Of a stretch of DNA of 64,000 nucleotides, positions 7,758 to 26,958 are shown piece by piece. Below the pieces are notes generated by a model that made no database searches, was not told the DNA's origin, and worked only from the letters and a program-made list of their open reading frames with translations. The position numbers and the translations under genes were made by a program. The stretch is from Poronia punctata. Lineage: Eukaryota; Ascomycota; Sordariomycetes; Xylariales; Xylariaceae. Location of the stretch: contig MU401547.1 in the NCBI GenBank assembly GCA_022579005.1, forward strand, positions 1 to 64,000, read 5' to 3'. Every line of letters begins with the position of its first letter. The first letter of the stretch is position 1.

Positions 7758-8467
7758 TACCCCAAGATTATCTGGCGTTTTAGTTGATCAAATAGTTCAG
7801 TCTACTATTGATTGGTATCGCTAGCCTATACCAAAAGTAAAAGGTATTGCCGAGTAGGTATAGAAGATGGCAACATAGTCTATTTTATTGACGGTGTTGA
7901 TAGGTCTCCTCCTAAGAATAAAGTAGGTAGTTTGTAGATCAATTGCCGACGTCATCGCCTCATCGGTCATTGCATGTCCCGAAACTCGACTGCTAGGCGA
8001 ACAAAAATGGGGGGACTGCTAAACGCGTTAAGAAAAGTTACTACCGCAGGGGGGACAGAGTACTAACCTGTTCAAGTTTCTCAGTTGTATCAAAATATCT
8101 TGCACAATTCCCGCCTATCGGGTTGCGACAAGACCAGCACCCTCCCGCCAGCAGCAATACTATTGCTCTATAGTAGATAATAGTACATACTTTTCAAGAG
8201 ATTGTTTGGTTTCCTTTGCATCTTCACATGTGTGACTGGGTGACTGGCCCGGCAGGTACACTCCTACGGTCCTACCATCGTCTCAACCTTTAGCCAGATC
8301 AAGTTAGCCTGGCTATCTGTGCCGGTAGTTGATCCGTCATAGTCAGTCTGTCAGGTCCCTCTACGAGAGGTAGGTAAAGTAGGTACCTTTGCTCACATCA
8401 TCCACTCATCTCGCTGCATCACTTCATCACTTCATCGCCTCATCCATCTGCCGACTAGTCTACCATA
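7758..8467. other. Spacer before the NRPS locus
   Basis: No gene recognised. Short CATC/TTCATC-rich repeats at about 8395-8450 precede the small Cys-rich ORF. Confidence 0.5.
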
Positions 8468-8629
8468 ATGCCTACTACCTACTCACAGTACAATATGATC
8501 ATGCCCGGCACTTGCGACTTCCAAGCCGGTCGCCAATGCTTGTCATGCGGAAAGGTCTACTGCGAGAGTGATTGCGCGATGCTACGGTCCCATGCCCATC
8601 ACCCCGACGACTTTAGGGAATCGTCGTAG
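8468..8629 (+). CDS. Small Cys/His-rich protein, zinc-finger-like (53 aa)
   Basis: An intact 53-codon frame. Cysteines fall at residues 16, 24, 27, 32 and 36, and histidines at 42, 44 and 45. The order C-x7-C-x2-C-x4-C-x3-C-x5-H-x-H-H resembles compact treble-clef or MYND/HIT-like zinc-binding folds (core CLSCGKVYCESDC). It is too regular to dismiss, but an ORF this short can occur by chance. It lies 485 bp upstream of the first NRPS gene on the same strand. No close family is recognised. If real, a role in protein binding or regulation would be the first guess. It could also be an exon of a longer gene. Confidence 0.35.
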   Translation: MPTTYSQYNMIMPGTCDFQAGRQCLSCGKVYCESDCAMLRSHAHHPDDFRESS

Positions 8630-9114
8630 CCGAGTCGGTCTGGTTAGCTCCCCTCCTTTTCCATGGTTGTATGGTACGAGGGCTTCCCAGCCGCAGCTCC
8701 TGGCTCGGTCGGATGCATCGCGTACGAGTACGGCTGAAATTAATTCAATATCTACCTAAACTAGACTACTGACTATATGATAGTATTTAGATTATATTAA
8801 TATACCTTTAGTAGTTAGACTTACGACAATTAAGTCAACATACGTCTACACTAAACATACTTTGTTGGATAGGTACTTTACCTAGCCCAACCGATCTACA
8901 TCCTCCGTTAGAAGATAGGATCGTTATACTGTACCTGGGTCGCCCAAGCCACCGCATGGTGCATACCGCCACTCCATTCTCCGTCCCAAAGCCTTCCATC
9001 GCCGACTTGCTGATCTGGCCGCGAGGTTAGCTATATCCATCGCCAACGGCATTTGGTCACGTAGCACAACGCAGGAATACATCACCCAAACCCTACTGAG
9101 TAGATACCAGCATC
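8630..9114. other. Promoter region of the first NRPS gene
   Basis: AT-rich at about 8740-8870, possibly a decayed repeat, then of ordinary composition. No upstream exon encoding the missing half of the condensation domain is visible. Confidence 0.45.
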
Positions 9115-11376
9115 ATGACCTTCGACCAAGTTGGTAGCACTGCCTGTGACAGTCTGGCGACGCCTGGACTGATTGCCGCACCATATTCAAAGACTGCGAT
9201 TCAGGATGAGGCAAATTACGACAAGACGCACTATGTATCCTTTCCTATTCTTCCTCCACTCGGAAAGCCGGCAAGGAGAAACGCGGTGCTGGAGCAACAG
9301 TGTCCACCAGTCGGGGAAAGGACTAAGGGGCAGACTAAGTCGACCACCTTGTATGCGGCTTGGGCCTTGACCGTGAGCCACATGACCAAGTCGAAGCGCG
9401 TCGTGTTCGGCGTGACGGATTGGCAGCATCAGCATCAGCCAGCGAAATTAGGAGATGCGGCCGGCGCAGAATTGCTTGCCATGCCCATTTTCATCGATTC
9501 CGATGGCCACCAATCAGTTCAGGACTATCTCGCTCATGTACAGAGTCAGCTAAACAGATTCGCGTCTTCTGATCTGGAAGGCGTGCGTGAGCCGGGAAGC
9601 GACACCCAAAGCAGGCCTGCCTTCTCGGCCCTACTCAATATCCAACCTGGGAAGGGTACTTGGATGGAGAGTTCTCCATGTCAGGGTACCAGCGAGCAGC
9701 AACCGTGTTGGAGCACGGGAATGGCCCTGACACTTACAATTCACTTTGGTATCGACCATACTGATATCACGGCTTCTTTCGACTCCACCGTCATCTCCGA
9801 TTGGACCATGAGACACTTGTGCCGGCAGCTGGCCTTCGCTTTACACCAGCTTCAAGTTTCAAGCGCCGAGGAGAGCATCTCTACAATCACGATTGCGACA
9901 CCCGACGAGTTGGAACATATTTGGAATTGGAATTGTGCTGTCCCGACTCCTGTTGAGCGTTGCGTTCATCACGTAATCCAGGAGTGCGCTGCATCACAAC
10001 CAGCTGCGCCGGCTGTCTGCGCCTGGGATGGTGAGCTATCGTATGGCCAACTTGACCGCCTGGCCATGGGTCTATCCGGCCAGCTTTCCGGGCTTGGTGT
10101 CTGTCGCGGTAAGATTGTGCCCCTGTGTTTTGAGAAATCCATGTGGGCAGTCGTCGCCATGCTCGGGGTGCTCCAGACTGGCGCCGCCTTTGTATTGTTT
10201 GACCCTTCGCTTCCCGAAAGTCGTCTTCTTGCCCTGGCGAGGCAGGTGAAAGCCGACGTCATCGTGTCGGGCGATTTGGAGAGGCAACTGAGCTCTCGAC
10301 TCGCACCCCATGTCATGGTTCTTGGTACATTTGTCAGTCAATCCTTGTACGATCAACCGGCATCACCGGCAAGCTCATCCCGTCCGTCCGATGTCATGTA
10401 CATTGCGTTCACGTCGGGTAGTACGGGAGTGCCAAAAGGCGCAGTCATAACCCATCGAAACCTCGCATCTGCCCTACACTATCAACAGGACGCTTTACGC
10501 CGTACATCTCGCTCTAGAACTTACGACTTTTGCGCATACACATTCGACGTTTCAATCTGCAATATATTCTCAACCCTTGCTGCAGGCGGCTGTGTCTGTA
10601 TCCCCAGCGAAGAACAACGGCGAAACCACTTGGTGGAGAGCATAGCGTCTCTCAGGGCAAACACTATCGATCTCACTCCATCTATCGCCCGAATCCTGTC
10701 TCCCGAGCAGGTGCCTAGTATAGAAACTATCATCTTTGGAGGAGAAACGCTGCACCCCAAAGACGTGGCACGTTGGTGGGGGAAAGTCAACATCGTTAAT
10801 CTCTATGGGCCATGCGAGTGCACGCCGAATAGCACAATCAACAGCAGTCCCACGAGTATTGAAGATGCCATACACTTGGGAAAAGGCCTCGGGTTGTTGA
10901 CTTGGATTGTCGATGCTGATAACCACGATGTTCTTCTTCCGTCGGGGTGCATTGGTGAGCTATTACTCGAGGGTCCTCTTGTTGGCCACGGCTATCTAGA
11001 CGACCCTGCAAAAACAGCAGCAGCATTCATTGAGAACCCGGTTTGGTTACTTGAAGGCAGTCCCCACCATGCGGGAAGACCTGGTCGGCTTTACAAGACT
11101 GGAGACTTGGTTCGGCTTGACAAGGACGGATCCTTGACTTTCATTGGGCGCAAGGACTCACAAGTAAAAGTTCGAGGGCAGCGGGTTGAACTAGGCGAGG
11201 TTGAGCATGCTCTCCTCGCATGTGATTCTGTTGACGATGCCGTCGTTGTTTTCCAACATGACGATAAACAGGGCGCTCGGATGGTAGCCTTCGTCACCAT
11301 CCATGACCAAACCCCTGCATTCGAGAAAAGACCACCGTCGCCTGAAGAGGCAGAGACGTCACCGTTACTGGGGTGA
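9115..11376 (+). CDS. NRPS fragment: C-domain C-lobe plus adenylation core, lacking A10 and carrier
   Basis: 753 residues, no intron. Residues ~75-270 match the C-terminal half of a condensation domain; the HHxxxDG half is absent. Residues ~278-753 are an adenylation core: A3 FTSGSTGVPKG (432-442), A4 FDVSI, A5 NLYGPCECTPN, A7 YKTGDLVR and A8 VKVRGQRVELGEVE. The frame stops about 45 residues after A8, so the LPxYMxP and GKxDR (A10 Lys) region and a carrier domain are missing. The missing parts appear at the start of the NRPS at 20182. Known reaction: ATP-dependent activation of an amino acid. Without A10, thioesterification should fail unless supplied in trans. Hand-read pocket residues D-V-C-D-I-G-L-P-N keep Asp235, so an alpha-amino acid is likely. 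GTGAGA at the stop could be a splice donor, but no matching exon was found. Confidence 0.85.
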   Translation: MTFDQVGSTACDSLATPGLIAAPYSKTAIQDEANYDKTHYVSFPILPPLGKPARRNAVLEQQCPPVGERTKGQTKSTTLYAAWALTVSHMTKSKRVVFGVTDWQHQHQPAKLGDAAGAELLAMPIFIDSDGHQSVQDYLAHVQSQLNRFASSDLEGVREPGSDTQSRPAFSALLNIQPGKGTWMESSPCQGTSEQQPCWSTGMALTLTIHFGIDHTDITASFDSTVISDWTMRHLCRQLAFALHQLQVSSAEESISTITIATPDELEHIWNWNCAVPTPVERCVHHVIQECAASQPAAPAVCAWDGELSYGQLDRLAMGLSGQLSGLGVCRGKIVPLCFEKSMWAVVAMLGVLQTGAAFVLFDPSLPESRLLALARQVKADVIVSGDLERQLSSRLAPHVMVLGTFVSQSLYDQPASPASSSRPSDVMYIAFTSGSTGVPKGAVITHRNLASALHYQQDALRRTSRSRTYDFCAYTFDVSICNIFSTLAAGGCVCIPSEEQRRNHLVESIASLRANTIDLTPSIARILSPEQVPSIETIIFGGETLHPKDVARWWGKVNIVNLYGPCECTPNSTINSSPTSIEDAIHLGKGLGLLTWIVDADNHDVLLPSGCIGELLLEGPLVGHGYLDDPAKTAAAFIENPVWLLEGSPHHAGRPGRLYKTGDLVRLDKDGSLTFIGRKDSQVKVRGQRVELGEVEHALLACDSVDDAVVVFQHDDKQGARMVAFVTIHDQTPAFEKRPPSPEEAETSPLLG

Positions 11377-12047
11377 GAAGGCGTATGAAACTCGTAATGG
11401 GGCACTTTCTGCCGATTTCCATGACAAAAGTACAGGCTATGATGTGAATTTTATGGAAGCGGGCGATCAGGGGCGTAGGTGGTCATTCGAGGTTAAGGAT
11501 CAGAGGAAAAATTGATCACTCCTACTTGGGCTAAAGGGCAGGAACTCGGGATTTGTCGAGTTGGTTTCCGGTGGTCATGACTAGGAAACTTGGACAGGAT
11601 TATGTCAGTGGTCAAATCGTGTACTAAGTACTCTCTTATCACAATTGCAAAAATTAGTTCTCAATACTAGATTATCTTGAAGTCTCATCGCAGGCAATGA
11701 ACCGTTGCTACCGAGTGCCAAGCGATTGGTCAAGGATCCCATTGTGAAAAAAAAAAAAAAAAAGCACAATCCTCGAGTGGTAGAAGGTAGAAAGACAACA
11801 ACAGCACATAAAACGACGCCACACGCTGAACCGATTATTGTTTTCCTAGTTCCGGCATATTCAAATGATGAGATATCCAAATAAACTTGGGTTTTGCAAT
11901 TTGATTTGATTTGGATGCGGCGATTTAATTCATCTATTTGCAAGTCTGCTCACCGCAGGGCATGGCCGGCTTCGCTTTGACTTGTAGCTGTAAAGAAGCT
12001 CTCCACCTTTTTCCAATCTTGTCCTTGTTCAGATCCAGCTCCCTAAT
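11377..12047. other. Spacer after the NRPS fragment
   Basis: A frame running through to 11515 continues in another phase beyond the NRPS stop but shows no A9/A10 or carrier motif. An A-run of about 17 lies at 11746-11763. Otherwise nothing is seen. Confidence 0.5.
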
Positions 12048-12740
12048 CTACAGTGGTCGTATTTGAATAATGTAATACTGCTCTGTCACGCCATTACCCA
12101 GATCGCCAAGTCCGTCCCGAATAATCTCCTGAGCATACCCGCAGGCCGCACAAATCTCTTCTATAGCACGCAAGTTGGCGTAAGGGACCGTCCCCAGCAA
12201 GACCGACCCGCCTTCGACCAGGTGGTCCCTGGCCTGAGAGACGAAGCGCCTCAGCGTGACGTAGCCCTCGTCCAGGAACATCTCCAACTTCTCGTCCTCG
12301 GTCTGCATTGTTCCGTCCCAGGCCCAGGGGTGATTCCAGAAGATGAAGTCGTACTTCCCGGTCACGTTTTCGAAAACGTCGCTGACGGCGAAGTGTCCGG
12401 TCTGACCGTTCGCCTCGAAGTTCTTCTTGGTCACCTCGACGGCGTTGGGGTTGATGTCTACGCCGGCAACGGCAGAGCCGGAGGCGGCGAGGTAGAGCGA
12501 GACGAGGCCCGAGCCGAGCCCGACTTCGAGGAAGGACTTCCCCTGGACGATGGGCGGGAGGTTCTCGCCGAACCATACCGTCTCCGGGAAGTATTTGGGG
12601 GAGAGGATGGAGGGATGGATGTAGATGTCGAAGTTGCCGACGCGCTCGAAGTAGGTTTCCTTGTGTGCACGGGACTCGGCCCACAGCTCGGACTGGCGTC
12701 GGTCCCAATCGGGACGTGGAGAGGGAGAGAGTGTGGCCAT
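12048..12740 (-). CDS. Class I SAM-dependent methyltransferase
   Basis: 230 residues from the ATG at 12740; an earlier in-frame Met at 12833 would add a low-complexity leader encoded by the GA repeat. Motif I is LEVGLGSGLVSLYLA (71-85), the acidic residue after beta-2 is D95 (VDINPNA), and motif IV reads FWNHPWAW (135-141). The last resembles the NPPY/NPPW motif of HemK/PrmC-like N-methyltransferases, but the first Pro is replaced by His. Intronless and visibly GC-rich. It lies between the two NRPS genes on the minus strand, in tandem with the carbamoyltransferase, so a tailoring role is likely. The substrate could be an N or O atom of the peptide product. It may instead be a general small-molecule methyltransferase captured by the locus. 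Confidence 0.8.
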   Translation of the reverse strand: MATLSPSPRPDWDRRQSELWAESRAHKETYFERVGNFDIYIHPSILSPKYFPETVWFGENLPPIVQGKSFLEVGLGSGLVSLYLAASGSAVAGVDINPNAVEVTKKNFEANGQTGHFAVSDVFENVTGKYDFIFWNHPWAWDGTMQTEDEKLEMFLDEGYVTLRRFVSQARDHLVEGGSVLLGTVPYANLRAIEEICAACGYAQEIIRDGLGDLGNGVTEQYYIIQIRPL

Positions 12741-13864
12741 TGTTTTGCCGCGTTTGACCGTTTGATGAGAAGGGTTATTATGAAAGCTGGTATAGAGAGA
12801 GAGAGAGAGAGAGTATTGTAGTGAGTAGTTCAAATCGTATCAGAAAGTGATATCAGAAGCAAGATGGCATACCAATAAAAGCCCTTGACTAGGATCTCAC
12901 GAAAAAGAGAGGCGAACCAATACGACTTACAAAGCAGACAACTACCTACGTTGTACAAACAGGAGACAAGGCAATTATAGTGCTAGGGATTCCCGCCCGT
13001 CTCAGAGGCCTCTTCCACTCTGCAGTGTGAAAGGGGTGTCAATGACGGATTAGGGGTAGAATTAACAACCCTAGACTAGGTTCTGGAACATATCACTAGG
13101 TTAGGTGCATGGGGAAAACGAATGACGTATACAAGACATATGTTAGTTGACGCTAGGTACCTAGGTAAGTAGGATAGGCATTAGAATTTACGTGCTAACA
13201 ACAAAAGGAACAGCGGCGGCTAAATAAGCATAGACTGGAGTGATCGCTGCAGGGTTAGATATAGCTGCAGAAATCTAGATACGCCAACGTAAACGTACCT
13301 CTTGCATTTCATTCGCTGTCAATTCATGCATTGCAAATCCTCTCATGTACCTACACTTTCCCCATAACCTCATGCACGGGCCTTTCTATTACCTCATGCA
13401 CTTTCCCATCACCTCATGCACGGGCCTTTCCATCACCTCATGCATGCACTATTGACACGAGAAGAACGAAGTGAGACAAACGAATCCCAATTCAAGGAAG
13501 ATCATCGGCCATGTTGACACATAGCCAATCTCTAGTTGGAAGACTACCAATGGAGATCCTGTACATTGGCTGTCTTCACCGCCATCTATAGTACACTCCG
13601 CACGGCTAGAGCACGGCTAGAGACGGAGCTTGTGAAGCCAGCAGCAGGAGCGACTTACGTGGTGATGGCCTAGTCTAGAGAGAATGAACCGTAGCAGCTC
13701 AAATTTAATTCAAACTCAACATGTTTGATTGTCCGAGAGAAGTGCCTGTTAGTGAATCCTATAAACGCTTCCTGTTAAAGCAGTAATGTTTTATATTACA
13801 GCAAATGCTAAGCATAAACTCTTATCTACAGCACTTGTACCTGACATAACACAGTAGACTAGCT
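12741..13864. other. Intergenic spacer
   Basis: A GA microsatellite (about 12801-12822) lies in the methyltransferase leader. TACC-type micro-repeats are frequent. An interspersed ACCTCATGCAC repeat is listed separately. No gene seen. Confidence 0.5.
13352..13450. repeat. Short tandem repeat, ACCTCATGCAC core
   Basis: The 11-mer ACCTCATGCAC (the last copy is altered) occurs at 13367, 13391, 13411 and 13434. The spacers alternate between GGGCCTTTCYATY and TTTCCCATC, so the higher-order unit is about 43-44 bp repeated twice. Confidence 0.8.
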
Positions 13865-14164
13865 ATCCCCTTGCGCCACAGATTTGCTCTGTAGTCTGTA
13901 CCGCGTTTGTATACTAATGACCATATGTTTAACCAATAAAAGGCTGTAAAATCAAGGTACATAATTTCTCACATTTTCCCACCTTGAAGGCCGGGGCCAA
14001 ATGTATAACTACAGATTCTAGCAATATAATAGTACATCATTTTTATTATTTTAAACTGAGGGCCTCTTTGTACCTGTTATGCTACTAGGTAATACAAAAC
14101 GCGGCAATGTGGGTCACCTTAAAGTAGAAGCGCGGTACGGAGCAAATCTGTAGCGCAAGGGGAT
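13865..14164. mobile_element. MITE-like element with 25-bp terminal inverted repeats
   Basis: The left end 13865-13889 (ATCCCCTTGCGCCACAGATT then TGCTC) and the reverse complement of 14140-14164 agree at 24 of 25 bases. Similarity resumes further in (GTACCGCG) after a small indel. The 300-bp element has no coding capacity. No clear target-site duplication beyond a possible AT dinucleotide was found. It sits between the methyltransferase promoter and the 3' end of the carbamoyltransferase. Non-autonomous DNA transposon is the best reading; a large hairpin of other origin is possible. Confidence 0.55.
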
Positions 14165-14283
14165 GTCCCTTCTCCTCCTTCTCAAGGCTAGAGTGGGACC
14201 CATGTAGGTACCTAAGTAGATACCTAGTGAAAACCCAGTTGTGCCAGGTGCCAGGACCCGCCGGCGATTGTTTCACTTCAAGC

Positions 14284-15978
14284 TCAGTTTTCGCGGGTGA
14301 CAAATCTGTTGCCTATGAAGAGGGCATCGATGCGCGTCTTCTTAAATGTGGCAATAGCGTGATCCGGGGTGCAGACGATTGGCTCGCTATCGTTGAAGGA
14401 TGTATTGAGCACCATGGGAACCCCGGTCAGGTCCGCAAAGTGGGAGATGAGCTCGTAAAAGGCGGGGTTGCGCTCGCGATGGACCAACTGTACGCGGGCC
14501 GTGCCGTCCTCGTGCAAGACGGCCGGTACCTGTTCCCGGCGGCCCGCGACCGTCTGGCAGGCAAAGAGCATGAAGTCGTAGCTCCGAGAGGGCTTGCCGA
14601 GTTCAAACCACTCGCCGGCCGGCTCGGCCAGGACGCTGGGCGCAAACGGACGGAATGTCTCGCGATGCTTCACTTTGACGTTGAGCATTTCGCGCGTCGC
14701 CGAGCTTCGCGGGTCGGCCAGCAACGACCGATTACCCAGAGCTCGGGGGCCAAATTCCATTCGGCCCTGGAACCAGGCCACAATCTTGCCGGCGGCAATC
14801 ATGCGGGCAGCCTCGAGGGCCGGCGAGCTGGACAGCTCCGGCGACAGCCCGGCGGCCTCGTATGCTGCGACGATGGCGGCGTCGTCGTACTCCGGGCCGA
14901 GGTACGGCGTATCGGAAGCGACGTTCGCGGGGCCACCCAGGCGATGATTCAGTTCTAGCGCGGCCCCCATCGCCGTACCCGCGTCATGAGGAGCCGAGGG
15001 AACGAAGATGTTGGAAAAGAGTCCGGCTTCCTTCAGGGCCACGTTGCTAACACAGTTCAGGGCGACGCCACCCGCAAGACACAAGTTGTCGGAATTAACC
15101 AGCTGGCGGAGTTCCTTGGCAAGTGCGAGAAGAGCCTCGTCCGTGACGAGCTGAAGAGAGGCGGCCACATCGTAGTGATGGCTCTCGAGCGGTGTATCCG
15201 GCTTGCGAGCGGGCCCAAACAGAGCCTCCAGGCGTTCGAAGTCGGGTAAGCGAAAATTGGCCGTCGCCTGGTCGACGGCGTATCCGCCAGCGCTCTCAAC
15301 CCACATCAGCTGGGAGAAGGCATCTTTGAACTTGGACCCGTCACCATATGCGGCTAAGCCCATGGTTTTGCAGGCGTCGTATTCGGAGAATCCGAGATAC
15401 TTGCTAATCTTCTCCCAAATGAAGCCGATAGAATGGGGGAAGGATATCTCGCGCAAGATGGTAATCCCGTTCTTATCGCCCCGCGCGAGCAACGTGCAAG
15501 CAGCCTCTCCAATGCCATCCGCGACGAGGATGGCGGCATCTTCAAAGCCGGACGGGTAGAAGCTGGACGCCGCGTGAGAGACATGATGCGGGATGAAGGT
15601 CAAGCGCTGTTCGGGTCGGCCGAAGTGGGCGGCCAATGCCTCGGGCACCGAACGAAGATGGGAAAGGAAAGTCTTCTCGCCTTGCTCCGTTCCCCAATCC
15701 CCGGCCTCGGTTCGGTCGTCCAAGATGAACTCGCGAGCGCGCAGATCCGGGTCGAAGGAATAGGCAATCGCGTCAAGATCCTCGGGCTTGACGGCGGCGG
15801 ATTCAAGGCAATACCGAATGCTTTCGAGAGGCAGTTCATCGGCATTGTCAACGCTCGCCGGCTTGGCATGCTTGATTCTGGAGAACCGTTCCTCTTCGGC
15901 CGCTGCAACGACTTTCCCGTCGACGAGCAATGTCGCGGCCGACTCGTGATAGACTGAATTGATTCCGAGAATTCGCAT
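14284..15978 (-). CDS. NodU/CmcH-type carbamoyltransferase
   Basis: 564 residues, intronless, GC-rich. The start MRILGINSVYHESAA is diagnostic of the family. HHVSHAAS at 131-138 supplies the metal and carbamoyl-adenylate-binding His residues of the Kae1-like N-terminal domain, with VADGIGE at about 152. KTMGLAAYGD, GGVALNCVSN and APHDAGTAMGAAL follow. The C-terminal YrdC-like part contains GRMEFGPRALGNRSLLADP and HRETFRPFAPSVLAE. Known reaction: transfer of a carbamoyl group from carbamoyl phosphate, through carbamoyl-AMP, to a hydroxyl of an antibiotic, sugar or alkaloid. The family is mainly bacterial. The gene lies between two NRPS genes beside a methyltransferase, so O-carbamoylation of the NRPS product is inferred. 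Absence of introns, base composition and family range suggest bacterial ancestry. Confidence 0.92.
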   Translation of the reverse strand: MRILGINSVYHESAATLLVDGKVVAAAEEERFSRIKHAKPASVDNADELPLESIRYCLESAAVKPEDLDAIAYSFDPDLRAREFILDDRTEAGDWGTEQGEKTFLSHLRSVPEALAAHFGRPEQRLTFIPHHVSHAASSFYPSGFEDAAILVADGIGEAACTLLARGDKNGITILREISFPHSIGFIWEKISKYLGFSEYDACKTMGLAAYGDGSKFKDAFSQLMWVESAGGYAVDQATANFRLPDFERLEALFGPARKPDTPLESHHYDVAASLQLVTDEALLALAKELRQLVNSDNLCLAGGVALNCVSNVALKEAGLFSNIFVPSAPHDAGTAMGAALELNHRLGGPANVASDTPYLGPEYDDAAIVAAYEAAGLSPELSSSPALEAARMIAAGKIVAWFQGRMEFGPRALGNRSLLADPRSSATREMLNVKVKHRETFRPFAPSVLAEPAGEWFELGKPSRSYDFMLFACQTVAGRREQVPAVLHEDGTARVQLVHRERNPAFYELISHFADLTGVPMVLNTSFNDSEPIVCTPDHAIATFKKTRIDALFIGNRFVTREN

Positions 15979-16969
15979 CTTGAAGTTTGTCTCCCAGGTG
16001 ATGTTATTCCCAACGCAGCTTTGGGTGATCTGGCTACTTTATGTTGACAGGCTTTGTAGAGTCGCTATCTCATCAACGGTCGCCTGGCTTAGATGATTGT
16101 GTACAAGCGGACCCTTGATGAAGTGAGTAAGTACCTGGATTTGTACCAAGATAGGAAGCATAACTGCATCGGTCCGTCTTTTATATAGCACTACACTTCG
16201 AGCGGTATAACAGTATTCTTGATGCTTGAGCGGGTCCATCGGGCGACCAACCTTGATTTCTCTTCTCCCCGTATGCAGGCTAGCAGGTTTCTGGGCCACT
16301 GTCCAGTCCGTACGGGAGTAAGAATCCAGCTCGGGATGGCCAGTGTAACTTCCCAGATGGTCACACTATTTCCCATTTCTCCCCCATATTGGCACCACTA
16401 CTAGTGCTACCCTGACGCACAGGACCCGACCTCACTTTACGTAAACACTCTAGCACCTACATGGTGCGGTTGGCACTGTCTTTAACTCTATAACATCACA
16501 TCCTACGTGGCAGGACAGGACTGGCTTGTGGCTGCTGAGGCGATCTGCAGCCAAAAAGGCGTAAGTGAAGGCATGTTTCGAGGATTGCGGCTGAGATATT
16601 CACTGCAACCTTCAAACGATAATGCGGTGGGGCCCGTTCGAAGCTTTGCCACCCTCACCCTAGCGCACTTGAGTGTGGCCCCGCGGCTCCGGCTCATTGG
16701 ACCTGCGATAGGAGACAGACATGATCTCGTTGTGCCGTTACTCGTACATACGATGATGTTCTTGCCCTCTGTAAACATGGTATAATGCATTTAACGTTGT
16801 ATTTTTTTTTACGGATAATTACGCATTATTATGCATCTATCTACACGCCAAGGGGGGGGGGGGGATCTTATATATATTAAACCGCCGTAAACACGCCCCC
16901 CCGAACAGAAAAAAAACCGGACACTTCTGTATTTCCGACCAATTCCACACATAGCCATCGTCTTCAACC
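15979..16969. other. Divergent promoter region, carbamoyltransferase / TenA-like gene
   Basis: About 1 kb between divergently transcribed genes. Overlapping frames of about 92-95 codons on both strands at 16503-16790 match nothing known. A G-run lies at about 16852-16864, shortly before the TenA-like start. A shared bidirectional promoter is plausible. Confidence 0.5.
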
Positions 16970-17779
16970 ATGTCGTCATTTACGCAGGCCCTCGTGGCCT
17001 CTGACCCGGCAGTCTTCCAGCGCGCCACGCAGTCGCCGTTTCTGCGCCGCGCCGCGCAGGGCACGGTTTCGAAAGAGGTCCTCGGGCGATACCTCGCCAA
17101 CGACCGTCTCTACGTCCACGGCTACCTGCGCGCCGCCGGCCGGCTGATCAGCTTCCTGCCGCTGCCGCAGGTGGTCCCCGCCGCGGGTGGCGAGCTGCAC
17201 GCGGACCCGGCGTCGAGGCTCCTGGCGTGGACGATTGACGACCTGATCAACATCCAGCACGAGGAGCGCTTCCTCGTCGACACGGCCAGGAAGTACGGCA
17301 TCGAGGTGAACCTGCCGGCGGACGAGCACGGACGGGTGCCCGCGTCGGCAAAGACGCCGGGTCTCCGCCAGTTCGAGGCCCTGTTCGATGGCTTGCAGTT
17401 GGGGGGTGGCGATGGGGGACTGCTGCCCTGGCTCGAGAGCGCGGTGGTGTTTTACGGGACGGAAAAGTGTTACCTGGAGGCGTGGACGTGGGCGAAATCG
17501 CAGGTCGACGAGGACAAGGACAAGGACGGGGCGGACGATGAGGATGGCGGCATGGTGCGGCGGGAACTCATCGCCAACTGGACGGGCCCCGAGTTCGAGG
17601 CCTTTGTCGATCAGCTGGCCGGGATTATCGACGCTGCGGTGCAGACGCAGGAGGAGGACGCCAAGGAGGCCTTGCTGCAGCGCGGCTTAGTCAAGTGGCG
17701 GGAGATTCTCGCTGCCGAGGAGGCATCTTGGCCCGTCATTGACGCTGATCCGACCATTCCGTCGCGTGTAAAAGAATAA
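16970..17779 (+). CDS. TenA/heme-oxygenase-fold protein
   Basis: 269 residues, intronless, GC-rich. The all-helical TenA family is recognisable from RYLANDRLYVHGYLRAAG (40-57, with the family Asp45 and Tyr48), the helix WTIDDLINIQHEERF (87-101) and LLPWLESAVVFYGTEKCYLE (151-170). Canonical thiaminase II has a nucleophilic Cys in the LPC position; here it reads LPW (W154), so thiamine hydrolysis is unlikely. Relatives of this fold include non-thiaminase fungal proteins and diiron or cofactor-less oxidases. An acidic linker (about 179-193) interrupts the C-terminal half. It sits between the carbamoyltransferase and the large NRPS, which suggests a tailoring or supply role, but single TenA-like genes are also common outside clusters. 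Confidence 0.75.
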   Translation: MSSFTQALVASDPAVFQRATQSPFLRRAAQGTVSKEVLGRYLANDRLYVHGYLRAAGRLISFLPLPQVVPAAGGELHADPASRLLAWTIDDLINIQHEERFLVDTARKYGIEVNLPADEHGRVPASAKTPGLRQFEALFDGLQLGGGDGGLLPWLESAVVFYGTEKCYLEAWTWAKSQVDEDKDKDGADDEDGGMVRRELIANWTGPEFEAFVDQLAGIIDAAVQTQEEDAKEALLQRGLVKWREILAAEEASWPVIDADPTIPSRVKE

Positions 17780-20181
17780 AACGAGGGCCATCTCATCTCA
17801 TCTCCTTGGGCGCCCGGATAATCTGCAGACCCATTTCACACAGAGAAATAGGGAAACTTGAAGCTGAACCAATAGCAAACCGTTATAAAAAGGTACAAGA
17901 TGATCCCTCTTTCCCTGCCCAATTTGAGCATGCCTTATGTAATGGCATACACTAGATCTACATGGTGCTTTACTAAACCAACTACTAGGTAGGTATTCTC
18001 TTGTACGTGTAATTACCTGTGATGTTACTCGTCCTCAAAACGTTCAAGTAATACGACCGTCTGCTGTATTTGTGGGGATTGCAGATATCTGTAGCCCAAC
18101 TTCCAAGGAGATGGATGGTGTGTGCATGATCGTGTCTAAATGTAGCGTAGGCATACTGTGTATATGTAATTGTACATGTATGCACCCGCACGGTCCGTGC
18201 CATCTCACCCCCCTGAACCAGTCATACTGCCGTAGCGGTTATGCACCTCGGAGGATTGTATGTAATACCGTACCCTACAAGCTGGCCCGATCTGTGACCC
18301 ACATCTTCTTCGCTAGTGTTGCCAGACACTTGTTCGACGTATGTAGCTGTATGTATGTATATCATTGTCTATGTCATCGACCATCTGCTTAATAAAGCCA
18401 ATGGACGTGTTTTCGCCCACTCAGGGACTCGAAGTGCCTTTACCCGCCGCAACCTACCGTGATGCCTCCTCAATCCTTCCCTTGGCGCCATTGCAATTTT
18501 ATCCATTGTCCAATCCCGGCTCTAATTCTTCCCATTTGTTGGCCATCTGTAACATCAGCTTACAAGTAAAAAAAAAAAAGAGAATTGTTAAGGGGACACC
18601 CATAATCCTAATACACTGTGTGTATAGCAAGGAAGGCACCTGCTGCTTTAAGTCTTATTTTCTATCAACATTACAGAATGCGATTTCTGCTTTTATAATG
18701 CAGGTGAAAATTCCTAGGTACGCTGCGTACTACCTATTGTAAATGTAAAGCAGCGCGCGCCTATTCCATACCTACCTACCCTGTACCCCTCCTACACGAA
18801 CACTACTACAAAACCGTGCCTGCCCCCAAAGCTTGACCACGCAAACCCGCTAATCATGAACTCCTGCCTACGTCATCCCACCCAAGACACCATCCGATTC
18901 GGTGTACTGTACAACGAGATCGGGCAAGAGTGTTCACTAATTTTGAACGACACCCCGGGCGAAGGCACATATGCTTTTTGCAGACGCAAGACCCGTGCAT
19001 CCGCAAAAACAAGGGAGTTGTCTGTCTGCTGCGTTAGTTTGACAGAAAAAGGGGAAATATTACGTGTATGTAAACACGTGATTTTTCCTACCTACCTACC
19101 TACCTACCTAGGTACCTATTGTAGTTAACCCCCCCCCCCCCCCCCGCGCGCATCAACGTAAAAGCTATCGATTCGGGTGGGACTCGATCACCCCAAACTG
19201 AGTGTAGGTAGCACACTCTATCAAGGGGGTTAGGTTCGATTCCTGACAGCGCTATTGGTATTCGCTTGGTAGCTCATTTCCCAAGATCTGTAATCGCTTA
19301 GCGTACCTTACCTACATGATTTGCACCACACCCCTGACCCCGACATTTCGGTAGGTAGGTACCGTACCGTACGGAGGCTTGCTTCAAAAGTACACGGCAG
19401 ATTTTCAACTCAATAGATTTACCTATTTCACTACCTACCTTACCTATCACGGGCCACCATTCCTAATTTGCACCAATTCCCTATAAAAAAGGGGAATGCA
19501 TTCTGTAGACCGTATCCATGTGACTTTTACAACAAAAACCTACGGTTAGTTATTCTTGGTACGTACTTTACTAATGCACCTACTACTACTAGGTAGGTAA
19601 CCTTTCTTGCTCTACCCAAGGTACAGCACTTAATTATTGATTGAATTATTACATCGCGCGCATATTTTTCTTTTTCTTTTTCTTTTTCTTCTTACATTGT
19701 TTTCAGCTAAAAAGCTATCGTAGAGCTAATCGCAGACCTTGCGGCCATGTCGTCACCTTTTTCTAAACCTGCACTAACTGACTTGTTGGTTTGATACAAA
19801 CTTTAGAATAGGTAATTATTCGTTAGTTACCTACCTACGTATCAAGGCGCCATTTGCTGTCACAGGCGGGCAAACCACGCTAGCAGTCCCGCTCATGGAA
19901 AGGGGCCTGTAGGTAAAGTAATGGAGGTAGGTACTCATTGCCTCCTTCAAGTCGGTCGTATGACTTCCTAGACATGGCGTGGGATCCTTTGAATCCAGGC
20001 TTGTATTCATCCCAAGCTGTCTCCCAAAGCCCTCTCTTCACCGCTAAATACTTCCGTTGCCGAATGCCGGATAAATTTTGGTTTCAGGGTGGTAAAGTAA
20101 AATCCTAACAAACGTTCATCGATCGTTATTTCATATCCTCAAATTTCGGAATAGTTTGATACCCGTATGGTGTAGGAGTTG
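17780..20181. other. Long spacer inside the NRPS locus
   Basis: 2.4 kb without a supported gene. It holds a 90-codon frame at 18856-19128 of no recognisable family, a TACC repeat (about 19089-19114), a C-run (about 19129-19145), CTTTTT repeats (about 19668-19690) and a B-box-like tRNA T-arm sequence at about 19233-19243 that does not fold into a tRNA. No adenylation-core relics were recognised directly upstream of 20182. Confidence 0.5.
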
Positions 20182-23100
20182 ATGGGTAGTTACCTATGTA
20201 AGTGGCAAGGTTCATTCTACGACATAACGCAAAGCTAACGACGGCCAGAATTTCAACTCGTACTCTCACTGTCAGCAAAGCTAAGAGAGAGACATTGTGT
20301 AGAGCTGGGCAATGTTGAGAATATGTTAGGCAGTAACAATTCTGTCAAGGATGCCGCCGTTGTGGTTCAACGCTCAGACTCCCAGGGGGCCCAGGGGGCA
20401 CAGGGAAGAGCGAAAGCGAAAGCGAAAGCCGCTAAACGTATACTGGCCGAGCTAAGCGACAAATTGCCCGCCTATATGCTCCCCAGTGCCATCGTAGTAT
20501 TGGACCAGATGCCACTCAACAGACATGGCAAGATTGATCGTCGTATGCTCTGCGATGAGAGAGTCGATAGACAGATGGCAGACAGGGAGTCGAAGACGCA
20601 GCCGTCAACACAAGCACAACTGGTTTTGCAACGGATATGGAGCCAGGTACTCGAACTCGACGTTGCCGCTATTGGGCTGGAGGACAATTTCTTCGAGCTC
20701 GGCGGTGACTCACTCAGTGCGATGCAAATCGTGTGTAACGTCCGCAAGATGGGATTCGACCTGGCGGTGGAGGATATTTTCCGCAACCCATTGCTACAGC
20801 ATCTAGCCAGCTGCTGTAAAGCAAAGTCACTCGACTGCGAGTTGGAAAACATCCAGCCCTTTTCACTCTTGGGCAGTGACGTTCACGTTCCGTCCTTGCT
20901 CGAGGACGTGTCGGCGCAATGCAGCTCGAATCCTAGCGCCATACAAGACGTCTACCCCTGCACAATGCTTCAGGAAGGCCTTTTGTCGCTGACATCAAGA
21001 CGGCCCGAGAATTATATCTTACAGTACACCTTGGAATTATCTGCCGACATCTGCCTCCCCAATCTCCAAAAGGCATGGGAAGCAACAATCCAAACGACGG
21101 ACATTTTACGGACAAGGGTCGTGCATCACGCTAGTTACGGCTTGTTGCAGGTGGTCTTGGACGAAGCAATCGAATGGGTTGACGCATCCAGCTTGACCGA
21201 GTATCTCCGCCTGGACAGGACACGACCGATGGAAATCGGCCAGCCACTGACCCGGTTTGCTCTAGTCAAGGATGACTGCGGGGTTCCGAGGTGGTTTGTG
21301 TGGACAATCCATCATGCGCTGTATGATGGCTGGTCACTCCCCCTGATCTTGAAAACGGTCGAGCAAGCATATCGTGGCGAGGAACTTCAGCCTCGGCAAC
21401 AGTTCAAAGCTTTCATCAAATATGCCAGAGAACGAGACGACGAAGAGGTGATGGAATATTGGCGACGTTCCTTGAGAGGCTGCGGCTGTGAAAGCTCAAT
21501 GTTTCCGGCTCCGACTCTCGGTACCGACATGGCGCAGCCACTGGCGGACAGTGTCATGGAGCGGCGGATACCACGATCGCGGAAATGGACGTCACAGCGT
21601 CTCGGAGTCACGACGTCCAACATGATCCGAGCCGCATGGGCATTGGTAACTAGCAGCATGACCAACTCGAACGATGTCGTGTTCGGCTGCGTTGTCTCGG
21701 GCAGGACTGCGCCTGTTGACCGCATCGATGACATAATCGCACCGACAATCGCAACGGTCCCGATTCGTATCAAGTTGCCTGATGACCAGACCGTTTGGGA
21801 ATATCTGAAAGAGACGCAGAGGCAATCGATGGAAATGATGCCTTTCGAGCAGGCCGGATTGCAGCGTATCGCTCGGATAAATTCTGATGGGCGCCGGGCC
21901 TGCATGTTCAATACGCTGCTCGTGGTCCAGCCGGAGAAAAGGGAAGAGGGCTCGGACCAGCGGCACTCGGTCGGGAGGTGGAAAGACTCCCAAAAGGAGT
22001 TTGCGGGCGCGTATGCTTTGGAGATGGAGGTGCAGATCGAAGCACACAGTATTGCCGTGTCGACCTACTTTGATAGCAAGTTGCTCGAGCCGTGGATCGT
22101 GTCAAAGCTTATGGACCGGCTCGGGGCCGTGCTGCACCAACTTGAAGACGCGAAGCCCCATCATTTGTTGGCAGAAGTCAGCTTGGTCACGCCAGATGAT
22201 CTGACTGAGATATGGTCACGAAACGGCGCTGTGCCAACTCTGGTGGAGCGTTGTGTTGATGAACTAGTCGAGGAGCGGACGCGGAGTCAGCCCGGGGCGA
22301 TAGCCGTCTGCGCTTGGGACGGGCAGCTGACATACAGCGAACTAGATCGGCTCGCAGCCAGGTTAGCCACTCATCTCGGCAGCTTGGAGGGTATTGGCAT
22401 GTTAATACCGTTATGTTTTGAGAAGTCGATGTGGACAACGGTGGCAATACTTGGTGTCCTCAAACTGGGCAAGGCTTTTGTTTTGTTGGACCCGTCCCTC
22501 CCGGAACAACGGCTCGAAGCAACATGCAAACAAATCCAGGCGAGCATTCTCCTCTCGTCAAGCTCTTGCAAGGCACTTGGCTCGAAACTGGCACCACAAG
22601 TCGTTGCTGTCGGTCCTGCATTCTTCAAAGATGAATGCAGCCATGTTGAAGGCAAAACATTGACCGCAAACGTCAGAAGCCCGCAGGACATTCTCTACGT
22701 GACTTTTACGTCTGGTACGACGGGCGTGCCAAAAGGGGTGGTTATTAGCCACCAAAATGTCGCCTCGGCCATTCGTTACCAGACAGAAAAGTTTGGCTTC
22801 ACGCCGAAATCAAGAGTATATGACTTCTCGTCGTATAGCTTCGATGCATCCATCAACACCACTTTCGTAACACTTGCTGCCGGCGGCTGCATATGTGTCC
22901 CAAGTGAATCGGATCGGAAGGAGAATTTGAGACAGAGTATTGTCTCCTTGAAGGCCAACGTGATTGATCTCACACCTTCTGTTGCCCAGCTGCTCCTCCC
23001 GGTGGATGTTCCCGACGTGCAGACGGTAATCTTGTCTGGTGAAGCCGTGCCAGTCGAAGCTATTAGACCTTGGTGGAACAAGGTTCGAGTTATCAATGTC

Positions 23101-25587
23101 TATGGTCCGTCCGAATGTACCGCAACCAGTACAATGAATACAAATCCATCATGTCTAGAAGAGGCCACTCGGATAGGGTCCGGTATCGGGCAGATAACTT
23201 GGATTGTAGATCCTGGCAATTACAACCTCTTAACTCCGATCGGATGCGTGGGCGAGCTGCTGCTTGAGGGACCGCTCGTGGGCTTGGGCTATTTGGGCGA
23301 CCCGGAAAGGACCGCTACGGCATTTATCGAGGACCCATCTTGGTTGCTCCAAGGTGTACCAGGTGGTGCTCCAGGTCGCCGTGGGCGACTTTATCGGACA
23401 GGCGACCTTGTTCGGTACAACGAAGACGGCAGCCTCAGCTTCGTTGGGAGGAAAGACACACAGGTGAAGATCCGAGGACAACGAGTAGAGCTTGGCGAAG
23501 TTGAGCACCGCCTGAGAGAATACTTTCCAGAAGCGACAGGTGTTGTTGCCGAACTTATCCATCTGGACAGCAAGCGTGCCGGTCTCACACTGGCAGCATT
23601 TGTTCAGAAAGACAGCAAGGGCGACAGTACTGCACATGGCAACCCGGACATTTTGCTAGCCACAGAGTTCTCCCCCCCTTGCTCAGTCCGAGATAGGATG
23701 GCCCTTTCCCTGCCGACTTACATGATCCCAACTGTTTTCTTTACTATGAGAACACTGCCTTTGACAGTTGCCGGTAAGATAGACCGCAAGCGATTACGTG
23801 AAATCGGCGCGGCACTCGGCGCTAAAGAGGGTCGGGATACGGGAACAACAACAAGCAATGGGACTAGTGTCGATACCATGCAGATGCTCGCTGGCGACAG
23901 CACACCTATTTTGGAGACTGAACAGCCAGCCTATGCACTGGCCAAATGGGTTTTCTCGATCAACCAGGATTCAGGTCGAAAAGACGAGCGGCCCAACCCA
24001 GAAGGCTTCCCCGATGCCCTTTTGCATTCATGCGGCCTTGACTCGGTCAACATGATGTCATTCGTCTACTTTATCCAACAGCAGTTCCAAGTCAAGGTGG
24101 GAATCCCACTATTGATGGATAGGGCCACGAGCATACGGAGTCTGGCTAGAGCTATATCCGATTTACAGGCTGCCGCTACGTCAGTCAAACAGGTTGAAGC
24201 GCCATGCGGACCTATGACAGCCCCGGTTGACCTCATGGCCGAAATAGATGGCCATTACTCCAGGATCGCGGCTGAGCAACAAGCACAGACTATCCAGGCA
24301 AAGCCGTCCTACAGCGTGCGCGAAACTGATGATGATGAGCGAGAGCACAACTCGGACAAGCCGGTGTCCGTCTTTCTTACGGGCGGCAACGGTTTCCTCG
24401 GCACACAAATCTTACGCCAGCTCATTGAGGACAGTCGTGTGGCTAGAGTCGTTGCCCTCGTGCGCGGCAAGACGGACGATGAAGCCAGTAGACGCACCAT
24501 CGATGCTGCAACGAGAGCTCTTTGGTGGACAGGGTCACACCAGTCGAAGCTTTGCGTCTGGGCAGGCGACCTCGGAATGCCGCAGCTTGGACTCGATTCA
24601 TCTCGTTGGACAGCACTTGCCGAGGGTGCAGAGGTTGATGTGGTGATTCATTGCGGCGCAACAGTGCACTGGGGGATGAGCTACCAGGCCTTGGAAGCCG
24701 TCAATGTCGGTTCCACGATGGAGCTGCTCCGTCTCGCCATTGCCGTGCCCCGTATGAATTTTGTCTACGTAACCGGCGGGCGAGAATCCACAGGTGATCA
24801 GGAGGAGGAGCGGGAGCAGGACGTGGTAGAGGAGTTGTCTACCTCAGATGCACTGGGCTACAGCCAAACAAAATTTGTGGCCGAGGCTGTGGTCAAAAGG
24901 GCGGCTCTATGTAGATCTAGCTCGTCGGTACACACTCGGCGCATCTCGGTCGTAAGTCCGGGGTGCGTGATCGGGACGCCGACGGAAGGCGTTGCGAATG
25001 CTGATGACTACATATGGCGGCTAGTGGCAGCTAGCATCAGCATTGGCATGTACAACGCCGATGAGGCCGATACATGGATTCCCTTGACGGATGCCGCAAC
25101 CACGGCGCGGGTCATCATTCGCAATGCGCTGTCGCCAAGTTCACAACAACCAATCGTGACGCAGGCCGCCGACGGGATGCCTTGGAGCCGTTTCTGGACC
25201 ATCCTGGCGGCCATGGGCTACAGACTCAAACCTGCCACCAGAAAAGAGTGGACTGCTGCTGTGCGTCAGGCTATCAACTCAACCAAGGAGGAGCACCCGC
25301 TGTGGCCGCTACAGTACATGCTGGAGGTCGAATATACGCCACGGAAAGAAGAGGACGGGACCGATGCATGTAGGGAGGAGAGACTCGAGAGAGATACACA
25401 TGAGGGGCTGGAACTGGCCGTGAAAAAGAGCGTGGAATTCCTTGGCAGAGAGGGATATCTGCCTTTGCCTGTACTTTTACCTGCCTCTGCTAAGCGTGTA
25501 CCGCAGGTCCTGGAGGGAAATCGCAGCCGAGGGGGAGCATTCTTGAGGTCCACTTCCAGACTTCAACATTGGGAAGCTGTTGGCTAG
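20182..25587 (+). CDS. NRPS: A-subdomain (A8-A10)-T-C-A-T-R
   Basis: Exon 1 20182-20197 and exon 2 20276-25587, 1775 residues. The 78-nt intron (GTAAGT, GCTAAC branch, GTCAG end) extends the frame to begin MGSYLSKLRERHCVELGNVE. This places an A8-like motif at the very N-terminus; the next in-frame ATG is 20323. Domains: A10 (LPAYMLP; LNRHGKIDRR with Lys91), T1 (FFELGGDSLS, Ser151), C (HHALYDG, 351-357, intact), A2 (FTSGTTGVPKG from 816; pocket read as D-A-N-D-I-S-V-A-T), T2 (CGLDSVNMM, Ser1262) and an NAD(P)H thioester reductase (TGGNGFLG from 1374; catalytic YSQTK, Tyr1534). Reductive release would give an aldehyde, alcohol or cyclised imine. The order resembles PerA minus its methylation domain. 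The core of the first adenylation domain is absent here and present at 9115-11376. Confidence 0.9.
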
Positions 25588-26958
25588 CCTGCTAACGAAA
25601 GTGTCGAGGATATTTATTAGCATCGCATTTAAATGGAGGACCGAATTCATCAGCACATCCCCAAAGTGAACCGTAGCTAAACTCTCGATGATGACCGCTT
25701 TGTATCGATTCGTCCATAAATGCGCATCCTGCAATAGTCCGACAAAGAAGGACTAACTAGGTGTCTAACCTAAGTTGGTCTCAAAGTGACGTCATCAAAT
25801 ACATAAGGTAGGTACTTATTAGCATTACGCCGTTTATTCTTGGCAATGACTAGTACTGTGATAAGGATAGCAGCTAATAGGTACCTGCAAAGGTCTCGAA
25901 GATGGCAAAAGACTAAATTTTTACTAAGAAAAATAGGCAAAACGGCCATTGACTGAGGAGTATTGTCGGTCTGCCAGTTATTGTATTTTGCGAGCATCTT
26001 TTGCATGGAAGTTGGTCTATACCTATTACCGAGAGGGGCAATAGGTGGCTTGTATAACACCGGCGTATCTGCCCAATTGGAAGGTGAGATAGCCCTAGAT
26101 AACGCTAAACGACTCGTGGCAGGCCAATCAACCTGGTAATCTTACCTGGTCCTTAACGTCCTACCTTTTCATCCCACTATTACAAGGCACATGCAGAATT
26201 CCTTCTCGAAAACCCAACTGGTCGGGTGCTAAGGAAGACCTAAAGAACACGCTAGACACTAGGTGAGCGTCCAATAAAAGTATCCAATGCGGCCAGATGG
26301 TTTGATTTATTCAGGTAGTCGAGAAATAATTATCCATCACCACATGCATAATTTCGGCATTTCGGGGTTGATGGTAGTATATTCGTGGCAACCAAGGGAA
26401 GAGTTTGACCCTTGAGCCGGGGCGACTGGAGGCCCCAAGATGCCCCGGAGGATCTTCCGTTCGACTCGGTAATTATTTGCTCGAGGTACACACTGCAAAG
26501 AGCTGTCTGCCCACATGGTCTTGACTAGGGGCAGGCTAGTACGGCACTCTAACCCGATCTCATAAAGAACCAACGGCCATCTTTCTTATTATAACTCGTT
26601 TTATTACTAGGAATCCGAGACCCTTGAAGAAGACGCTCTCTCTTTTTCTTCACCCTCCACTCTCCTCACGATTCTCAGCTCTCGCAACTTTCCTTAATTC
26701 TTGGTCATTATTTTCCAACCCATTCATTCATTCTCTTTCTTGGAAACTACACGACCCTATGCATTGAATCGTACGAGATCTGCCTTTTGAAGCCCTTTTA
26801 TTCTTGCTACCGCTGACAGCCGGCGCTTCGTCCCGCGCGTTGCTGAACTGGTCGTAGAACTCGCGACCGTTACAGCGAGATAAAGGGAAGCAAAAGCGCT
26901 TAGTGGCTAGAAGAGCAAGAGAAAGAGAAAACAGGAGAATACGGAAAGGAGATTCAAA
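25588..26958. other. Spacer between NRPS and permease
   Basis: No gene recognised. The last ~350 bases form a pyrimidine-rich then GA-rich leader before the permease ATG, typical of a long fungal 5' UTR. Confidence 0.5.

What the first reader, a model, noticed from the sequence alone, without database searches (positions are those of the whole stretch)
9115..25587. A reductase-type NRPS whose first adenylation domain is divided between two genes 9 kb apart
Seen: the gene at 9115 encodes an adenylation core through A8 but stops before A10 and has no carrier. The gene at 20182 starts at an A8-like motif, supplies A10 (GKIDR) and a carrier, then C-A-T-R. Together they make exactly one A-T-C-A-T-R enzyme. 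Known: A10 Lys lies on a mobile subdomain that rotates against the core, so a core/subdomain boundary is a mechanically sensible place to divide the enzyme. Inference: either the two proteins reassemble in trans, which would be a new kind of natural NRPS split, or an ancestral synthetase was broken and tailoring genes now sit in the break.
Basis: partly seen in the sequence, partly recalled or inferred. Interest (0 to 1): 0.8.

Follow-up and report, generated by a model that had tools for sequence, protein, structure and literature searches.

The report
Two truncated, mismatched fungal NRPS genes
A fungus carries two peptide-making genes that look like two halves of one broken enzyme, but relatives show they are cut-down pieces of two different enzymes that may now have to work together, which would be an unusual way to rebuild an assembly line.

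Summary
The anatomy is largely as described. The gene at 9115 (753 aa) has a C-domain remnant and an adenylation core through A8, but no A9, A10 or carrier. The gene at 20182 starts at an A8 remnant, then A9-A10-T-C-A-T-R. They are not halves of one enzyme. Gene-2 orthologues (80-90% identical) in Akanthomyces and Beauveria carry their own first A domain, 28-31% identical to gene 1 and in another clade (100/100). Gene 1 belongs to another NRPS family: three relatives (82-88%) end at nearly the same point, one (81%) continues into A9-A10-T-C. Each gene was thus truncated on its own, at the same A8/A9 site. Gene 1 is open with intact motifs in 4 of 4 copies. Gene 2's own A1 core is missing in 3 of 8 proteins and motif-damaged in 3 of the other 5, while A9-A10, T1, C, A2, T2 and R motifs persist in 8 of 8. 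I favour gene 1 acting in trans with gene 2's orphan A9-A10 to charge T1; the rival is charging by A2. A functional two-gene split A domain is already published (bacterial Crz1/Crz2), so trans-assembly is not new; a eukaryotic, non-cognate pair would be.

The parts
9115..11376 (+). Gene 1: 753-aa carrierless C'-A(core) protein, ends in mid-subdomain
   Evidence: open frame; relatives P0124-P0126 end at nearly the same place
9283..9858 (+). C-lobe remnant of a condensation domain in gene 1
   Evidence: PF00668, E 0.0032, profile 248-448 of 456, below cut-off; model
9958..11157 (+). Adenylation core of gene 1 to the hinge D686
11158..11340 (+). First part of the A subdomain (A8 plus strands); homology to unsplit relative P0127 ends about 11340-11346
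12051..12839 (-). Methyltransferase-like ORF between the two genes
   Evidence: PF05175, E 8.9e-13
14287..16035 (-). Carbamoyltransferase (both Pfam halves), between the two genes
16970..17779 (+). ORF with weak TENA/THI-4 similarity, between the two genes
   Evidence: PF03070, E 3.4e-4, below cut-off; start read by eye
20182..20275 (+). Predicted short first exon (20182-20197) and intron (20198-20275) of gene 2
   Evidence: GTAAGT / CTAAC / CAG; prediction only
20276..25587 (+). Gene 2 main exon: A8 remnant, A9-A10, T-C-A-T-R
20299..20394 (+). Subdomain stretch also present in gene 1 (18 of 32 residues identical)
20464..20541 (+). Orphan A9 (LPAYMLPS) to A10 (GKIDR) of the lost first A domain
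20626..20811 (+). T1 carrier domain (LGGDS intact)
20944..22197 (+). Condensation domain (HHALYDGW intact)
22270..23295 (+). A2 adenylation core of gene 2
24376..25071 (+). Terminal thioester-reductase domain (PF07993)

Best explanation
These are two different NRPS genes, each truncated at the A8/A9 site. Gene 2 is an A-T-C-A-T-R synthetase that lost its own N-terminal A1 core, leaving A9-A10-T1 orphaned (shown by comparison). Gene 1 is the first part of an A domain from another NRPS family that lost A9-A10-T and has been kept as a separate carrierless protein (shown by comparison). Most likely gene 1's core activates an amino acid with the help of the A9-A10 subdomain still attached to T1 of gene 2, and so charges T1 in trans before the C-A2-T2-R part finishes a reduced dipeptide (inferred). 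My confidence is about 0.9 for the two-separate-truncations part and about 0.4 for the mechanism; the figure below is for the whole statement.
For: Gene-2 orthologues have their own A1, 28-31% identical to gene 1 and in a separate 100/100 clade. Gene 1 groups 100/100 with P0124-P0127; three of these four end within a few residues of where gene 1's homology ends and one continues to A9-A10-T-C. Motifs A2-A8 of gene 1 show only conservative changes in 4 of 4 truncated copies. Random drift to 83% identity left 0 of 300 simulated copies free of stops. In gene 2 the A1 core is missing in 3 of 8 proteins and motif-altered in 3 of the other 5, while A9, A10, T1, C, A2, T2 and R motifs persist in 8 of 8. 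The orphan A9-A10 segment has 3/108 private changes in the three core-less proteins against 10/54 in the adjacent linker, Fisher p 0.001, uncorrected. A split at this site works in Crz1/Crz2.
Against: No biochemical or expression data. Gene 1 and core-less gene 2 are seen together only in this window; no contig linking them was found in a relative. The specificity codes of gene 1 (DVCDIFLPN) and of the lost A1 (DAWFLLGVC in P0009) differ at 8 of 9 positions, so gene 1 is not a like-for-like replacement (code positions recalled, read by motif anchoring). The halves come from different families and overlap by 32 residues. The low rate of A9-A10 against the linker is also seen in the five proteins that still have a core (3/180 against 7/90), so it shows that constraint persists, not that a new role began. 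Beauveria-type gene-2 subdomains are 22-28 residues shorter from hinge to A10 than P0127's. The A1 core of bearing copies is not in general faster evolving than A2. The model of gene 2's N-terminus was too poor to use (pLDDT 50.7).
Confidence: 0.4

Rival explanations
1. T1 of gene 2 is charged by another complete A domain, most simply its own A2, as proposed for A-less T-C units of fungal ferrichrome synthetases; gene 1 does something unrelated.
For: [quoted passage not shown] A2, T1, C, T2 and R motifs persist in 8 of 8 proteins. The genome has many other A domains (57 matches to gene 1).
Against: It does not explain why A9-A10 stays conserved after the core is lost nor why gene 1 is kept as a carrierless core.
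Confidence: 0.25
2. Module 1 is a relic: A1 was inactivated in the Beauveria group, T1 and C are passive, gene 2 works only through A2-T2-R, and gene 1 is a separate protein of unknown use or on its way out.
For: A1 is missing or motif-altered in 6 of 8 proteins, and the Beauveria-type subdomain lost a strand even where the core remains (4 of 4).
Against: T1 and C keep their active-site motifs in 8 of 8 and vary about as much as A2; gene 1 is open with intact motifs in 4 of 4.
Confidence: 0.2
3. One ancestral gene was broken by inserted tailoring genes, and the two genes are its true halves.
For: Complementary motif content and three unrelated genes between the parts.
Against: Gene-2 orthologues carry another A1; the halves overlap; gene 1 relatives exist as the same truncated gene.
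Confidence: 0.03
4. Assembly or gene-model artefact.
For: Draft assembly of 573 contigs; both fragments end inside one domain.
Against: The truncated gene 1 recurs in three other protein clusters and core-less gene 2 in two others; no remnants of the lost parts were found in the window by tblastn.
Confidence: 0.04

Closest known systems
Corallorazine NRPS Crz1/Crz2 (Corallococcus coralloides), PMC11342130 (passages and section 7 read)
   Same: Core through A8 on one gene, A9-A10 at the start of another; the carrier is missing from the first gene; same split site.
   Different: Bacterial, adjacent genes, pieces of one A domain, nMT inserted after A8, activity shown on mixing. Here the genes are 8.8 kb apart, fungal, from different NRPS families, no nMT, no assay.
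PerA/PpzA-like A-T-C-A-(M)-T-R reductase synthetases (architecture recalled; 'peramine synthetase' seen only as a database label)
   Same: Gene-2 orthologues are A-T-C-A-T-R with a terminal reductase; gene 1's A domain is closest, outside its own clade, to A-M-T proteins, two of which are labelled peramine synthetase.
   Different: Window gene 2 has no A1 core and no M domain; product unknown.
Ferrichrome synthetases with lost or degenerate A domains, PMC2644324 (passages read)
   Same: A domain lost, T-C kept, another A domain presumed to charge it.
   Different: No separate core-only gene mentioned in the passages read; here A9-A10 is retained.
Stand-alone [A-T] modules complementing dead A domains in trans, PMC8949500 (passages read)
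   Same: Loss of a cis A domain complemented by a separate gene.
   Different: Those stand-alone modules have A and T; gene 1 lacks A9, A10 and T.

Membership tests
Crz-type two-gene split A domain | First gene ends after A8 without A9/A10 | tested here: met
Crz-type two-gene split A domain | Second gene begins with A9-A10 followed by a carrier | tested here: met
   (it also keeps an A8 remnant)
Crz-type two-gene split A domain | Both pieces are parts of one A domain on adjacent ORFs | tested here: not met
   different families, three genes between
Crz-type two-gene split A domain | Adenylation restored on mixing the two proteins | not testable with these tools
   needs protein assay
PerA/PpzA-like reductase NRPS | A-T-C-A-T-R order in orthologues of gene 2 | tested here: met
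PerA/PpzA-like reductase NRPS | Complete first A domain in the window gene | tested here: not met
PerA/PpzA-like reductase NRPS | Pyrrolopyrazine product | not testable with these tools
   no metabolite data
Stand-alone trans A domain | Complete A domain with A10 lysine | tested here: not met
A-less T-C unit charged by another A domain | A core lost, T and C active-site motifs kept | tested here: met
A-less T-C unit charged by another A domain | Charging of T1 by that A domain | not testable with these tools
   needs protein assay

The most novel reading that the evidence does not exclude
A eukaryotic split adenylation domain made of non-cognate halves: the core of one NRPS family, kept as its own gene, works with the orphan A9-A10 subdomain of an unrelated synthetase that discarded its own core, so that the peptide's first residue has been switched by exchanging only the core as a separate protein.
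Probability: 0.28. Interest if true: 0.8.

Novelty: new variant of a known kind. Interest (0 to 1): 0.5.

Why it matters
If the two proteins cooperate, it is a natural example of swapping an adenylation core in trans at the A8/A9 site, a position the corallorazine authors suggest could be a starting point for NRPS re-engineering. Even if not, a first A domain that is missing or motif-damaged in 6 of 8 related proteins while the rest of the line is kept asks directly how its carrier is charged.

Tried and rejected
Rejected: gene 1 as the missing A1 of gene 2; remnants of the A1 core upstream of 20275 or of A9-A10-T after 11340 (none found in the window by tblastn); a long intron joining the genes (the overlap and the different families speak against it; no transcript data). 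A repeat search over 8000-21500 showed no pair flanking the intervening block, only short families, a 43-nt tandem pair at 13358-13444 and a 29-nt inverted pair at 13865-14164. The A1 core of the bearing copies does not in general evolve faster than A2, though it is lower in P0008, so loss of constraint rests on motif changes and deletions. Whether the three A1 losses are independent is open: the ML tree needs 3 changes and 0% of 200 bootstrap trees have a single one, but no inner branch is starred and the AU test does not reject one clade (p 0.199). The junctions differ. Comparing longest-contig lengths between protein lists to infer synteny gave nothing reliable. The second structure job was uninformative. 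Literature, listings unless said: searches for split A domains listed only the corallorazine paper or none; one search gave the review PMC8949500 (passages) and one other; 'truncated adenylation domain' with fungal gave one paper, on a bacterial enzyme; among the papers listed (capped lists) I saw none that by title or abstract treats this cluster. A Beauveria genome paper names one carbamoyltransferase as positively selected (PMC13313595, passages); its link to the window's gene was not tested. PMC6670151 gave one hit in its reference list only.
Full report
Anatomy. ORF 9100-11376 (+) contains gene 1 (ATG 9115, 753 aa). Pfam finds an AMP-binding core (E 1.6e-53), the first 39 of 76 positions of the A C-terminal subdomain (24.3 bits, just under its cut-off of 24.5), and a weak C-domain C-lobe. 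ORF 20239-25587 (+) is gene 2: AMP-binding_C, T, C, A, T and a male-sterility-type reductase. Motifs A9 and A10 are absent from gene 1 and present at the start of gene 2. A structure model of gene 1 (mean pLDDT 78.8) has a confident core, a less certain half-subdomain and a disordered end, and matches C-A structures such as Txo2 and EntF.

Not halves of one enzyme. The protein search with gene 2 (residues 1-640) returned 4712 proteins, 120 listed. Nine rows are at least 79% identical there: the window's own and eight others, among them Akanthomyces muscarius P0009, Beauveria gryllotalpidicola P0007 and B. asiatica P0010; the rest bear no species name. P0005, P0006, P0007, P0008 and P0009 are 2304-2437 aa and carry a module 1 with core. 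Their A1 is 28-31% identical to gene 1 (34% over the partial A1 of P0004), whereas gene 1 is 45-46% identical to their C-A2 part. In a tree of 40 A cores the four gene-2 A1 domains entered (P0005, P0007, P0008, P0009; P0004 and P0006 were left out) form, with that of the more distant P0113, a 100/100 clade set apart by a very long branch from everything else, gene 1 included.

What gene 1 is. The search with gene 1 returned 374 proteins, 120 listed. Besides itself, four rows are at least 81% identical, none with a species name. P0124, P0125 and P0126 (82-88%) are 732-765 aa and end 8, 8 and 2 residues after the DQT of VAFVT..DQT, without A9, A10 or carrier; the window protein ends 20 residues after it. 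P0127 (81%, 703 aa, begins inside the domain) goes on into A9, A10, T and C. So the truncated form is shared by other protein clusters and an unsplit relative exists. Motifs A2-A8 show only conservative changes in the 4 truncated copies. In simulated random drift of the reading frame, 200 substitutions gave 83% identity and 0 of 300 copies without a stop, 150 gave 86.5% and 0.7%. The database is biased to intact frames, so this supports selection but does not prove it. In other relatives of gene 1 an N-methyltransferase is inserted just after the point where gene 1 ends: in P0128, P0131, P0137 and P0138 a SAM motif lies at hinge+128 to +133 and A10 only at hinge+509 to +538; P0130 has the SAM motif at hinge+134 but no A10 match. 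Of 15 proteins tried, 8 did not match the hinge pattern and were not read; P0127 and P0146 showed no SAM motif. The nearest other NRPS of the same genome is 54% identical (contig C150).

What happened to gene 2. I compared eight proteins (window, P0004, P0005, P0007, P0008, P0009, P0010, P0011; P0006, nearly identical to P0005, was dropped). The A1 core is missing in three: window, P0010 and P0011. By eye, P0010 keeps the first residues of its relatives joined directly to the subdomain, P0011 keeps more of them, and the window keeps an A8 remnant: three different junctions, all between A8 and A9. Of the five with a core, three have altered catalytic motifs: TSCSTGQPRG in P0005; TSDSTGQPRG, YGSTE and NIQGHG in P0008; an inserted residue in A3, SDAST and GTTD in P0007. 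P0009 and P0004 are intact where read; P0004 begins at A3 and may be cut by its contig. Four of four A1-bearing copies of the Beauveria group (P0004, P0005, P0007, P0008) have only 73-79 residues from hinge to A10, against 101 in P0127 and 135 in P0009. Against a general decay, A1-core identity between bearing copies (86-94%) is close to that of A2 (84-96%), lower only in P0008. The motifs A9, A10, T1 serine, C-domain HHxxxDG, A2, T2 and reductase persist in 8 of 8, with a few conservative changes; the records of P0009 and P0007 end within or near the end of the reductase. Whether A1 was lost once or several times is not settled (ML tree 3 changes, AU test for one clade p 0.199).

Is the orphan A9-A10 still used? 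Counting residues private to one protein, the A9-A10 segment of the three core-less proteins has 3/108, the neighbouring linker 10/54 (Fisher p 0.001), the T1-C linker 14/120 (p 0.012), the A2-T2 linker 13/109 (p 0.017). It does not differ from T1 (11/219), C (71/1296), A2 core (72/1215) or the A2 counterpart (4/111) (seven comparisons, uncorrected). As a control, the five proteins that still have a core show the same contrast (3/180 against 7/90 in the linker). So the constraint on A9-A10 is kept after the core is gone, which continued use predicts; but the ages of the deletions are unknown and the numbers are small.

Mechanism. Shown: two separate truncations at the A8/A9 site, one leaving a core without A9-A10, the other leaving A9-A10-T1 without a core. 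Inferred: they meet in trans. The precedent is corallorazine: Crz1 stops after A8 (plus nMT), A9-A10 are on Crz2, Crz1.2 alone shows no turnover with glycine and mixing gives almost quantitative turnover (PMC11342130, section 7 read). Here the halves are from different families, and the substrate codes of gene 1 and of the lost A1 differ at 8 of 9 positions (DVCDIFLPN against DAWFLLGVC, positions recalled), so cooperation would mean a changed first residue. The main rival, charging of T1 by A2, has a fungal precedent proposed for ferrichrome synthetases (PMC2644324, passages). I put trans-assembly at about 0.4, A2 charging at 0.25 and a relic module at 0.2.

Between the genes. Three ORFs with Pfam similarity lie in the 8.8 kb: methyltransferase-like (-), carbamoyltransferase (-) and a weak TENA/THI-4 ORF (+). 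The carbamoyltransferase is 95% identical to a cluster represented by Nemania (32 members, not seen singly) and 82-87% to the five Beauveria rows listed; the nearest named bacterial rows (Mycetohabitans, Mycoavidus) are 62-64%. One match was found in this genome, the window's own. This looks like a transferred gene rather than an old part of the cluster, an inference without a tree.

Verdict. The striking arrangement is real but the literal reading fails: not one divided enzyme. What remains is a loss, possibly recurrent, of the first adenylation core beside a conserved core-only gene, a testable variant of a known, so far bacterial, split. Co-occurrence of the two genes outside this window could not be shown, and the own-genome searches with P0002 and P0009 did not complete.

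Noticed in passing
window 14287-16035 (-): Carbamoyltransferase 95% identical to a cluster labelled Nemania sp. FL0916 (32 members, not all seen) but only 82-87% to the five Beauveria rows listed; patchy across distant fungi, nearest named bacteria Mycetohabitans and Mycoavidus at 62-64%. Suggests horizontal transfer.
   Followed up: partly
window 12051-12839 (-) and 16970-17779 (+): A methyltransferase-like ORF and an ORF with weak TENA/THI-4 similarity lie between the two NRPS genes.
   Followed up: no
window 20182-20275: A consensus-like 78-nt intron would give gene 2 a 16-nt first exon; the alternative start is the ATG at 20323 used by the database protein P0003.
   Followed up: partly
window 6519-7757 (+) and 26911-28570 (+): GFO/IDH/MocA oxidoreductase upstream and an amino-acid permease downstream of the pair.
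   Followed up: no
proteins P0004, P0005, P0007, P0008 (no window coordinates): In the A1-bearing gene-2 proteins of the Beauveria group the module-1 subdomain lacks a strand (LVGFVT in P0009) although the A1 core remains.
   Followed up: partly
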